From an uncultured Lachnospiraceae bacterium (GTDB lineage: Bacteria > Bacillota > Clostridia > Lachnospirales > Lachnospiraceae), in NCBI GenBank assembly GCA_945868485.1, contig CAMBLS010000007.1:1-32536 (forward strand): a stretch of 32,536 bases of DNA. The letters are read 5' to 3'. Shown in pieces: positions 75-18,074 of the stretch (its first letter is position 1; the number at the start of each line of letters is the position of its first letter). Under the pieces are notes generated by a model. It was not told the origin of the DNA. It saw nothing but the letters and a program-made list of their open reading frames with translations, and made no database searches. Position numbers and translations under genes: made by a program.

Positions 75-332
75 CAAGCGGTGACTGTACACTCTCCCGT
101 GCGTGTCCTGCCTTCCCATAAGATTAAGTGCAGTTTTCTGCACATCTTAAGTAGGCACGCTTAACGCCCGTGTTTCTGCTCCTCTTGGCAGACGTTATGT
201 TTGTACAGTGACTTGCCGTCAGGTTCTTAGGTTCGGATTCCCGACCCTCTTGACATTCGCTCCACGGAAAACCTGCACTGTCTTTCGGCAGGGCAGCAAC
301 CTCACGCTTCACAGCTATCATGCCACAGCAAT
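75..332 (-). ncRNA. Structured non-coding RNA on the minus strand; candidate raiA-motif-type RNA (family unconfirmed)
   Basis: Promoter at 337-365 on the minus strand. Inverted repeats: TAAGAT/ATCTTA (119-124/144-149) enclosing GTGCAG-TTTT-CTGCAC (128-143); TCTGC/GCAGA (175-179/188-192); long-range ACTGTAC/GTACAGT (84-90/203-209); a GAAA-loop hairpin near 281-295. No credible ORF. The family name is from recollection only. Confidence 0.55.
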
Positions 333-607: not shown

Positions 608-2098
608 ATGGAGAAACAGGTTTTGAACGGCAATATGAATGACTTGAAAACAAATTTAGAAAACAGTGATTTTTATGTACAGCAGGGTTCATTCGAAGAA
701 TTTGATACTATTGAAATGGCATCAAAGGGTAAACTGTTAAGCTGTTTTGGAAATAATGCGGGTTCAGTATATACAGTTCTTTTTTTCCCACCGGCACCGA
801 ATCAGGATTTTGCAAAAGGTAATGCTGAGCGTGGCTGGGATGATGAGAAAGCAACCATATACGATGATCCGGATGTGAAAAATTATCCTGCAAATCCATT
901 TTTTTCACCGGCAGGATGGCAGTATAAACTTCGCCAGGATGAGGCTTTGGTTCTATATACAGAACTTCCACCTGAATGCAAGTATTTTTCATTCATCAAT
1001 TACATCATGTTTACCAATGAGAAGGAGGGGAAGAACTACTCAGGTGAGAAGGGATACTTCCAAGTGGGTAATGAGGAAACAGGATTTTACCATCCGATTT
1101 TTGGCTCCATTGGCACATCCGTAAGTAATGGAAGCGTAAAATGTGACGGAGACAGTGTTTATGGTTCAAAAGCAGTCATCTTAATAAGTGCCAACAAAAC
1201 CGTGACAAAACAGGTGATAGAGCATCTTACAGAAGCAGGTATTTCTGAGAATATGATTAATGTTATGACTATCCCTGAAAAGACATACAGGATGGGTTTG
1301 GAAAAGGGAAAGGATACCTTCTGTATGATAGGCAGAATTTCGCAGCCAAAGAATCGCGACGAATACGAGAGGTATATTACTAGGCTCCCCGAAAACTCTG
1401 TTGCTTACCGTGTAACACCAAAGACAGAGATTGCTTCTAATCCATATGCCAACGAAACGATTATACCTAGGGGAACTGGCGAACATGAAGTTGCAATTTT
1501 AGATAATGCTGAAGAAAATCTTGATACAATCCGCCGGGCAATCATTGCAAAATATAGTGATGAATACAACTATGAAGAGCTAGGGGGAGAGATTGCAGTT
1601 CCAGAAGGACTTACTGCATACATAACAGATTTCAACGCAAAGGGTGATAACCGCGATACCAGTTACACTATGACACCTGATTTTACCCTTAACTCAGATG
1701 ATGATTTTATTGTTGTTTATGGCGTAAATCATACAGCAACAGGAAAAGCTCATTATTCAAATGCAGTATTATATGCAAAGCCAATGCTTAATGGTGTTTG
1801 CAGCGTATATGATTCTCTGTATCCGGGAACTGCACAGGAATATTTAGGAGATAACTGCAAGGATGCAGACAGTTACTATGTTTACAAAATGGCAAGAACG
1901 CAGATTGATAAGAATACAAGAATTATAGAGTACTCTACCGGAAACGAAAAAGGAAGGTTCTATGGAGTAGATAATGATAATCCGTTGGTTATGGCATTCC
2001 GTGCTTATGTGGATAAGACAGGGGTTGGACCTTCATATTATGAGATTGTCTATGATAGAACGATTGTATTTCACAAGAAAGGAAATGGTGAACGATAA
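608..2098 (+). CDS. Uncharacterised 496 aa protein (start 608 or 635)
   Basis: Long intact ORF; no recognised catalytic motif. Stop lies 2 nt before the next ATG, implying co-transcription with the MATE gene. No strong RBS at 608; ATG at 635 is an alternative. Confidence 0.8.
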   Translation: MEKQVLNGNMNDLKTNLENSDFYVQQGSFEEFDTIEMASKGKLLSCFGNNAGSVYTVLFFPPAPNQDFAKGNAERGWDDEKATIYDDPDVKNYPANPFFSPAGWQYKLRQDEALVLYTELPPECKYFSFINYIMFTNEKEGKNYSGEKGYFQVGNEETGFYHPIFGSIGTSVSNGSVKCDGDSVYGSKAVILISANKTVTKQVIEHLTEAGISENMINVMTIPEKTYRMGLEKGKDTFCMIGRISQPKNRDEYERYITRLPENSVAYRVTPKTEIASNPYANETIIPRGTGEHEVAILDNAEENLDTIRRAIIAKYSDEYNYEELGGEIAVPEGLTAYITDFNAKGDNRDTSYTMTPDFTLNSDDDFIVVYGVNHTATGKAHYSNAVLYAKPMLNGVCSVYDSLYPGTAQEYLGDNCKDADSYYVYKMARTQIDKNTRIIEYSTGNEKGRFYGVDNDNPLVMAFRAYVDKTGVGPSYYEIVYDRTIVFHKKGNGER

Positions 2099-2100
2099 AA

Positions 2101-3903
2101 ATGGAAGCAAGTCTTGATGTAACAAAAAACAGTAAGCTGTTAAGAAGAAATATTATTCAGATGCTACCTGCGTGCTTCTCATTAAGCATGGTTTATGTGC
2201 TTATGATTATGATTGACTCGCTTTTAGCCGGTAAATTTACAGGAACTACAGGAGTTGCTGCTGTATCCATTGGTGCACCAGCATATTTGATTTTCTTATC
2301 ATTTCTTAATGCCATAATACATGGAACAGAACTTCGTATGACATGGCGTCTGGGAAGAAATGATAAAGAGGGATTACAGAGAGCTTTTGCAGGTGGCGTA
2401 TATTTTACCATGGTTACGGGCATTCTTCTGTCTGTTTTCGTATTTTTTATTGCACGTCCATTAGTTATGATATTTGGTGGTAGCAAGAGCACGGAAGAAA
2501 TTGTTAACCTTGCAGTATTATATATTAAGTGCTGTGCATGGTGTATTTCTATTCAGGGAATAGGTGGTGTTTTTCGTTCACTTTTTAGTGTTATGGGATT
2601 TCAGAGAGACCGAATGATTACTAATCTGGCTAATGTTATTACAAATATTATCTTTTCAATACTTTTTATTAATCTGCTTCCTGCACCAATAAAGATTATG
2701 GGTCTTGGACTTGGTAGTGCATGTGCATCTGCTGTTGATTCAGCAATAGCAATTATCTTATATAAAAAGCATAAATTTGGATTATCATTAAAGCCTGTAT
2801 TGCTTAAACCAGCTGAGATTCTTGATACTATGAAGAGTGGATGTCCATCATCTCTTGATAATATTCTTGATTGTATCGTTTCTTCCATTATCAACAGACT
2901 GGTTCTCGGAGCATTCGGCTCAGATGGAGTAATGCTTTCGATGGTAACAGTAATCAATAATATTCGTAAGCTTGGCAGAATGCCTATTCAATGCATGGGC
3001 TATGCAGCTTCACCCCTATACGGTATTGCATATTCTGCGAGAGATAAAGGCAGTCTTATTGATTCTCTTAAGGAGAGTTTTAAGATTGGTCTATTAATTA
3101 CCGTAATCTGGGAGGTGATTTTATATATTCTTTCTCCTATAGTATTTAGTGTGTTTAATATGAGTGGTAATGCCATTGTACAGAGAGGAACGGTAATTGT
3201 TCTTGCTAGTATGCCAATTGTTTTGATTGTGTATTTGCTGGTATCTTTCTTTGAGTCTACTAAGAGATTTGGCTTGTCAATTTATATGGCATCCGCACCA
3301 GATTCACTGGTTTATCCAATTCTTGTTGCTCTGCTAATTCCTCTGCTTAAGAGTGACGGAATCTGGTATGCAATGGCATTAAACGGTATTATTGTTTTAC
3401 TGATTTCTTATTTGATTATGATGCTTGTAACAAAAAAGGTAAGGGTACCTGCTGAAACACTTTTATTCCTTGATAGTAGTGTTAAAAACGCAAATGCAAT
3501 TTGTGAAATGACAATTCATAATACACTTGAAGAAGCAACGGGAATATCAAAAAAAGTTCAAGAATTCTTTAAAGATAAGAATGTTTCAGAACGTATTCAG
3601 ATGGTCAGTGCTCTTGCGGTTGAGGAAATTATAGTTGATATGATTAAGCACCCTGGCATGGAAGAAAAAAGAGCAGGAAAGAGAGTGATGGATGTAAAGA
3701 TATTCGAGGATGATGAAAATGTTCAGATTCTAATTAGAAATATTGCCCCATTATATAATCCCTTAGCAAATTCAGATGACAAGGAAAACGAAACTAAGGA
3801 TGGAATCAGATTAGCGCAATTACTGGCTACTGACATAAGTTATTCGTATGTATATAAAATGAATGTTGTAAATGTTCTGCTCAATAAAGGTATTCAAGAA
3901 TAG
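2101..3903 (+). CDS. MATE-family (MatE) multidrug/polysaccharide-type transporter with C-terminal RsbW-like HATPase domain
   Basis: About 12 hydrophobic segments in MATE arrangement, followed by a soluble C-terminus with ALAVEEIIVDMIKH (N-box-like), ILIRNIAPLYNPL (G1-like) and GIRLAQLLATDISYSYVYKMNVVNVLL (G2-like). Confidence 0.85.
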   Translation: MEASLDVTKNSKLLRRNIIQMLPACFSLSMVYVLMIMIDSLLAGKFTGTTGVAAVSIGAPAYLIFLSFLNAIIHGTELRMTWRLGRNDKEGLQRAFAGGVYFTMVTGILLSVFVFFIARPLVMIFGGSKSTEEIVNLAVLYIKCCAWCISIQGIGGVFRSLFSVMGFQRDRMITNLANVITNIIFSILFINLLPAPIKIMGLGLGSACASAVDSAIAIILYKKHKFGLSLKPVLLKPAEILDTMKSGCPSSLDNILDCIVSSIINRLVLGAFGSDGVMLSMVTVINNIRKLGRMPIQCMGYAASPLYGIAYSARDKGSLIDSLKESFKIGLLITVIWEVILYILSPIVFSVFNMSGNAIVQRGTVIVLASMPIVLIVYLLVSFFESTKRFGLSIYMASAPDSLVYPILVALLIPLLKSDGIWYAMALNGIIVLLISYLIMMLVTKKVRVPAETLLFLDSSVKNANAICEMTIHNTLEEATGISKKVQEFFKDKNVSERIQMVSALAVEEIIVDMIKHPGMEEKRAGKRVMDVKIFEDDENVQILIRNIAPLYNPLANSDDKENETKDGIRLAQLLATDISYSYVYKMNVVNVLLNKGIQE

Positions 3904-17493: not shown

Positions 17494-17523
17494 ACTATAT
17501 ATGAATTTACCCTTGTCAGTCAA
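17494..17523 (-). promoter_or_regulatory. Likely promoter for putP
   Basis: Minus strand: TTGACT - 18 nt - TATAGT. Confidence 0.5.
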
Positions 17524-17551
17524 CCTAAAATTTATCCTGTTACTGTGCTAA

Positions 17552-18021
17552 AGTTAGAGTTCAGCTTTCTTGGGATACAAAGTCTGCCCGCTGTCATATT
17601 CTGCCCATGCCTATGACAGCTTTCGGGATTTTGGAAAACATTCGGGACAAATACCTATTAGCTGCTCCTTCTGGCAAACTTGAAGCCAATAGCCTGTAAA
17701 GATGCGACGAGCCTTTTAAAAAATTTTTTGAAAAATCAAGAAATTCATTTCAGAAAATGTACACACCAGTTTCAGTGTTCGAAGCGGAGCAAGTTTTGAA
17801 ACTGGTGTGTTTATGTCATATCTGAAATGGATTTCTTAGATTTCTCCAAAATTTTTTATAGGCTCTAGCACTTTATAGGCTATGGCTTCTTCAAACATGC
17901 CATTCGGACAGCAATATCTTTGTCCCGAATGTTTCTACAAATCCATCGAAAGGCAGTCAAAAGGCACGGGCAGAATATGACAGTGGGCAGACTTTATTTC
18001 CATGAAAGCCGAACTCTAACT
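17552..18021. repeat. 470-bp imperfect palindrome (long foldback inverted repeat)
   Basis: Arms of about 223 nt start and end with AGTTAGAGTTC.../...GAACTCTAACT. Perfect central stem ACACACCAGTTTCA (17761-17774)/TGAAACTGGTGTGT (17797-17810) around a 22-nt loop. Near-identical blocks such as GTCTGCCC(G/A)CTGTCATATTCTGCCC occur in both arms. No ORF. Confidence 0.93.
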
Positions 18022-18044
18022 GGTTAAAGCATTGCGCAAACTCA

Positions 18045-18074
18045 TTGACACTGTCCACGCACGCAACGTATAAT
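18045..18074 (+). promoter_or_regulatory. Consensus sigma-A-like promoter for the DUF1015 gene
   Basis: TTGACA (18045-18050) - 18 nt - TATAAT (18069-18074), 24 nt after the palindrome. Confidence 0.75.

What the first reader, a model, noticed from the sequence alone, without database searches (positions are those of the whole stretch)
17552..18021. 470-bp near-palindromic foldback element between putP and a DUF1015 gene
Two arms of about 223 nt are mutual inverted repeats along their whole length, by eye roughly three quarters identical, with a perfect 14-bp central stem and a 22-nt loop (gtgttcgaagcggagcaagttt). Terminal blocks (AGTTAGAGTTC(A/G)GCTTTC) and the GTCTGCCC(G/A)CTGTCATATTCTGCCC block are most conserved. 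There is no ORF, and this is far larger than a terminator. It ends 24 nt before a consensus promoter. It could be a non-autonomous foldback/MITE-like mobile element, a long double-stranded hairpin RNA, or a regulatory cruciform. Several arm differences are A/G or C/T, so pairing is partly kept as G:U on one strand or the other.
Basis: partly seen in the sequence, partly recalled or inferred. Interest (0 to 1): 0.72.

Follow-up and report, generated by a model that had tools for sequence, protein, structure and literature searches.

The report
Mobile DNA palindrome with self-matching arms
This is one of at least nine copies, in this bacterium's genome, of a roughly 470-base DNA palindrome that moves around like a small parasitic element; its outer arms change quickly but both halves change together, apparently because one half serves as the template for the other.

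Summary
The palindrome is real: 468-470 bp, RNA folding z = -23, DNA folding z = -20. It is multi-copy: at least 9 dispersed places in this genome, and 10 of 37 searched genomes of the genus but none of 24 outside it. The window copy is an insertion: a sister species has the empty site. Ends are GTTAGAGTTC...GAACTCTAAC with an imperfect ~8-bp duplication. Other copies have clean duplications (TTTTCGAA, GGCTGTCC, 8/8) and GTAACAGTTCAGC ends. IS66-type elements in the same genus carry nearly the same ends (GTAACTATTCAGC) and an 8-bp duplication, so an IS66-type transposase is the likely mobiliser; none was found in this genome. The surprise is internal. The centre is conserved between copies; a ~30-bp block outside it is near chance level between copies (0.52) but 0.84-1.00 identical between the two arms of each copy. 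Mismatches show no G:U excess (G:T 147, A:C 142), so RNA selection is not supported. Between orthologous loci the centre is inverted in 4 of 8 pairs, and complementary double changes exceed chance. Best reading: a foldback MITE-like element whose arms are homogenised by hairpin template switching or arm-to-arm recombination. New variant of a known kind.

The parts
17553..18020 (.). the mobile palindromic element, GTTAGAGTTC...GAACTCTAAC, 468 bp
   Evidence: empty site in sister species, end and duplication scan, inverted repeats
17545..17552 (.). left copy of the ~8-bp target duplication (GTGCTAAA)
   Evidence: comparison with empty site CTGCGTTAAAGC; decayed, 5/8 to the right copy without gaps
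18021..18028 (.). right copy of the ~8-bp target duplication (TGGTTAAA)
17553..17578 (+). left terminal region (GTTAGAGTTCAGC...), counterpart of the family terminus GTAACAGTTCAGC
17996..18020 (-). right terminal region
17579..17610 (+). left hypervariable block, near chance level between copies but 0.94 identical to the other arm
17964..17995 (-). right hypervariable block, partner of 17579-17610
17611..17963 (.). conserved core shared between copies, with asymmetric bulges at fixed places
17761..17810 (.). tip: perfect 14-bp stem and 22-nt loop GTGTTCGAAGCGGAGCAAGTTT; part of the region most widely shared in the genus
18045..18074 (+). promoter-like site of the DUF1015 gene, outside the element
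17494..17523 (-). promoter-like site of putP, outside the element

Best explanation
The element is a non-autonomous, fully palindromic (foldback) mobile element. Shown: it is dispersed in many copies; this copy is absent from the same place in a sister species; several copies have 8-bp target duplications, and the ends resemble those of IS66-type insertion sequences of the same genus. Inferred: an IS66-type transposase acting in trans moves it by recognising the ends; 58-bp core-less palindromes with the same ends also carry duplications, so the ends seem sufficient. Also inferred: the two arms stay complementary while their sequence drifts because the DNA folds into a hairpin or cruciform and one arm is copied from the other, by replication template switching or by recombination between the arms. 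That explains the concerted changes, the clustered complementary substitutions and the frequent flipping of the centre, and needs no RNA function.
For: At least nine dispersed copies in the own genome; ten genomes of the genus. Empty sites. Target duplications TTTTCGAA 8/8 (L003), GGCTGTCC 8/8 (L159) and 7/8 (L167). Terminus GTAACAGTTCAGC 33 times in G015 against 0 for the control. IS66-type element L194 with ends GTAACTATTCAGCCTT, duplication AGGAATTA on both sides, 485-aa DDE_Tnp_IS66 protein; IS66 hallmarks GTAA ends and 8-bp repeats as described in PMC11946415. Arms: block identity 0.84-1.00 within copies, 0.52 between copies. G:T 147 against A:C 142 mismatches. Complementary double changes between orthologous copies: 4 of 4 in L086/L090 with 0.43 doubles expected, and others. 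Centre inverted in 4 of 8 orthologous-locus pairs. Template switching is known to give arm homogenisation and spacer inversion (PMC8604942).
Against: No IS66-type transposase was found in this genome or in the two other strongest carriers, although they are incomplete metagenome assemblies. The window copy's duplication is imperfect. The core keeps the same asymmetric bulges in all copies, which free arm-to-arm copying should erase, so some constraint acts on the core. Some orthologous-locus pairs may be repeated insertions, because the tree of centres does not follow the locus.
Confidence: 0.68

Rival explanations
1. A long structured or double-stranded RNA: the element is transcribed and the arms co-vary because selection keeps the RNA stem.
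For: Very stable fold; covariation between arms; conserved bulges.
Against: No excess of G:U over A:C mismatches in 30 copies; covariation comes in clusters and with inversion of the centre; core-less forms with the same ends persist; no Rfam family. Caveat: decaying copies blunt the G:U test.
Confidence: 0.08
2. DNA hairpin under direct selection: transposition or another process needs a full-length folded strand, so only copies with matching arms spread; the arms match by compensatory mutation and not by copying.
For: All sizes from 58 to ~500 bp are palindromic, even core-less ones; pairing kept without strand bias.
Against: Double changes are clustered, the centre flips, and the block was lost from both arms in L097, which fits copying better than independent compensation.
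Confidence: 0.17
3. Two nested elements: the core palindrome is a separate mobile unit that inserted at the centre of unrelated small GTAAC-ended palindromes, which would make the outer arms differ between copies.
For: Sharp drop of similarity at the core edge; core-less palindromes with the same ends exist.
Against: The core-less L161 keeps a remnant of the core edge (AGCTATGACAGCT) and looks like a deletion product; the 18 nt next to the core are still faintly alignable between copies; no direct duplication flanks the core; no core was seen outside such arms.
Confidence: 0.05

Closest known systems
IS66-family insertion sequences (single-ORF type, DDE_Tnp_IS66 with DUF6444; L194 and L192 in this genus)
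   Same: Ends GTAAC-TTCAGC, 8-bp target duplications.
   Different: No transposase gene; the whole element is a palindrome; only about the first 13 nt resemble the IS ends, the interior is unrelated.
Bacterial MITEs (for example QMITE2, Chunjie, as reviewed in PMC10969869)
   Same: Short, non-autonomous, multi-copy, intergenic, terminal inverted repeats with target duplications, strong hairpin.
   Different: Inverted repeat over the full ~470 bp; the centre is conserved and the arms variable, the reverse of a usual MITE.
Quasipalindrome template switching (PMC8604942; E. coli work such as PMC7202029)
   Same: Arm homogenisation, clustered changes, inversion of the spacer.
   Different: Known mostly for short repeats as a mutation process; here it appears to act on a dispersed mobile family over long arms.
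REP/REPIN elements with RAYT transposases
   Same: Dispersed intergenic palindromes mobilised in trans.
   Different: About ten times longer, with GTAAC ends and 8-bp duplications in place of short tagged hairpins.

Membership tests
MITE (miniature inverted-repeat transposable element) | multiple dispersed copies without transposase gene | tested here: met
MITE (miniature inverted-repeat transposable element) | insertion into an otherwise intact site with target duplication | tested here: met
   empty sites; duplications 8/8 and 7/8, though imperfect in the window copy
MITE (miniature inverted-repeat transposable element) | terminal repeats shared with an autonomous element of the same genome | tested here: inconclusive
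   shared with IS66-type elements of other species of the genus, none found in the own genome
IS66-derived element | ends beginning GTAA and 8-bp target duplication | tested here: met
   family terminus GTAACAGTTCAGC, GTAA enriched at ends 15/58, duplications; the window copy itself begins GTTA
IS66-derived element | mobilised by an IS66 transposase | not testable with these tools
   needs a transposition assay
Structured non-coding RNA | pairing conserved with G:U favoured over A:C on one strand | tested here: not met
   147 against 142
Structured non-coding RNA | match to a known family | tested here: not met
   Rfam gathering-threshold search; only generic hairpin miRNA models far below their thresholds

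The most novel reading that the evidence does not exclude
The palindrome is not passive: the conserved, asymmetrically bulged core is a protein-recognised DNA hairpin that drives a dedicated arm-copying and centre-flipping cycle, so that each lineage of the element carries its own renewable perfect arm block while the core stays fixed. This would be a mobile element that maintains itself as a self-templating DNA hairpin.
Probability: 0.12. Interest if true: 0.8.

Novelty: new variant of a known kind. Interest (0 to 1): 0.5.

Why it matters
Long palindromes are usually regarded as unstable in bacteria, yet here a family of ~470-bp palindromes has spread through a genus and persists. Because its sequence and its pairing evolve at different rates and orthologous copies exist, it is a natural record of how often palindrome arms copy each other and flip in wild bacteria. 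It also warns that perfect covariation in a hairpin can arise from DNA-level arm copying and need not mean a functional RNA.

Tried and rejected
Target inverted duplication (outer arms copied from the insertion site): rejected for the window copy, whose empty site holds neither arm; yet in L090 the arms do contain the 3' end of the flanking gene. Conserved RNA: not supported by the G:U test. IS66 transposase in the own genome: none. Wider spread in the family: hits outside the genus are 22-45 nt and without a palindrome. Plasmids, phages and viral contigs: none. Pattern scan of the genome collection: only the sister species' assembly JAQXYZ01. I first read L041/L099 as an inversion; orienting by flanks showed it is not. 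Deep 'orthologous' loci: the tree of centres does not follow the locus, so repeated insertion or replacement of the centre is as likely as common descent; I rely most on L023/L029, L030/L085 and L086/L090. A promoter-disruption role: both promoters are intact.

Full report
Observation. The 17552-18021 palindrome is present as described: five pairs of inverted segments in register, a folded energy far below shuffled sequence as RNA (z -23.4) and as DNA (z -19.7), and no ORF of 90 aa or more inside. It lies between two divergent promoter-like sites, TTGACT-18-TATAGT before putP (17523-17494, minus) and TTGACA-18-TATAAT before the DUF1015 gene (18045-18074), and disrupts neither.

It is a dispersed repeat. 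The window's genome (G000, 330 contigs) holds at least nine places with the core (contigs C7, C9, C154, C66, C28, C18, C143, C13, C236), several cut off at contig ends. Among 61 genomes searched, ten carry it, all in one genus. A search of 397 genomes of the family found nothing convincing outside the genus: the weak hits are 22-45 nt and have no palindrome. Plasmids, phages and viral contigs gave nothing.

It is an insertion. The sister species G018 has the same putP/DUF1015 intergenic region at about 95% identity and no element: CTGCGTTAAAGC against CTGTGCTAAA-[GTTAGAGTTC...GAACTCTAAC]-TGGTTAAAGC. The duplication is about 8 bp and decayed. Other copies have empty sites too (L003, L004, L009, L012). 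Clean duplications are TTTTCGAA around L003, TATTGCTT/TATGGCTT around L017 (read), GGCTGTCC around the 58-bp palindrome L159, and 7/8 around its sibling L167.

Its ends are of IS66 type. The family terminus GTAACAGTTCAGC (up to one mismatch) was found 33 times in G015, against 0 for the reversed control, mostly 40-200 nt from contig ends: assemblies break inside the element. GTAA is enriched at palindrome ends over the full copies (15/58, against 0-7/58 at other offsets). Two IS66-type elements in the genus, L194 and L192, carry GTAACTATTCAG at both ends; L194 has AGGAATTA on both sides and a 485-aa DDE_Tnp_IS66 protein. IS66 elements are described with terminal repeats beginning GTAA and 8-bp repeats (PMC11946415); a GTAAC variant is quoted in PMC12888890. 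No such transposase was found in G000, G018 or G015. IS66-type mobilisation is therefore inferred from ends and duplications, not shown.

Core-less palindromes of 58, about 63, 93, 123 and 163 bp with the same ends exist, and the 58-bp form is present at two places with duplications. The ends therefore seem sufficient for movement.

The unusual part. From the tip outwards a copy has a conserved core, a ~30-bp block, and the terminal region. In nine close copies, core identity between copies averages 0.77 (0.86 in the closest six), while the two core arms of one copy are only 0.74-0.78 alike. For the block it is the other way round: 0.84-1.00 between the two arms of one copy and 0.51-0.52 between copies, against 0.48 for shuffled sequence. 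Thus the block changes fast, and in both arms together. The core keeps bulges at fixed places in the copies compared.

RNA or DNA. Selection on an RNA stem would tolerate G:U on the transcribed strand more than A:C. Over 30 full copies there are 147 G:T and 142 A:C mismatches (p = 0.81). Either pairing is kept at the DNA level, or the copies decay neutrally from a well-matched state; neither shows an RNA.

How the arms change together. In copies at orthologous loci I counted base pairs changed on both sides. Complementary double changes against the number of doubles expected by chance: L086/L090 4 of 4 (0.43), L034/L109 3 of 4 (0.65), L024/L097 8 of 10 (1.9), L041/L099 11 of 12 (3.6), L023/L029 2 of 3 (1.1), L030/L085 0 of 1 (0.75), L025/L108 0 of 1 (0.3). 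They tend to cluster (positions 54-66 in L086, 147-158 in L024, 114-117 in L034). L097 lacks the block on both arms while keeping the terminal ~20 nt of L024 at the same locus. With each pair oriented by its flanks, the centre is inverted in L030/L085, L086/L090, L024/L097 and L021/L040, not in L023/L029, L041/L099, L032/L094 and L034/L109, and unclear in L020/L096. Homogenised arms, clustered changes and inverted spacers are the described products of template switching between inverted repeats (PMC8604942); recombination between the arms would also invert the centre. I cannot separate the two here.

Limits. The genomes are metagenome assemblies; copies at contig ends are truncated. Deep orthologous loci may be repeated insertions, since the tree of centres does not follow the locus for G007/G017. 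The constraint on the core remains unexplained.

Verdict. A new family of full-length palindromic, IS66-ended, MITE-like elements. Insertion and multi-copy nature are shown, the mobiliser is inferred, and arm copying is well supported but not proven.

Noticed in passing
window 213-320, minus strand: S10-Clostridia ribosomal protein leader (RF03136, 65 bits, threshold 35).
   Followed up: no
L090 (G034:C44) against L086 (G025:C52): The palindrome arms of L090 include the 3' end of the flanking gene and an inverted copy of it on the other side; the orthologous locus L086 lacks the inverted copy. It suggests that palindromes can grow into neighbouring sequence.
   Followed up: partly
L009/L032/L094, L020/L096, L021/L040, L024/L097, L041/L099, L003/L022: Copies in different species lie in the same intergenic regions far more often than their number would predict, although their centres are not sister sequences: insertion hotspots or in-place replacement of the centre.
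   Followed up: partly
L194 (G024:C114), locus 1351-3174; L192 (G019:C24), locus 675-2471: Two single-ORF IS66-type elements with GTAACTATTCAG ends and DUF6444 plus DDE_Tnp_IS66 domains.
   Followed up: partly
L014 (G000:C193), locus 1479-1536: A 58-nt hairpin made from a short piece of the element's right arm and a perfect inverted copy of it with new flanking sequence; looks like a small template-switch product.
   Followed up: no
L038 (G025:C82), locus 1289-2007: An inverted-repeat span of 720 nt around one copy, longer than the others; its outer arms were not identified.
   Followed up: no
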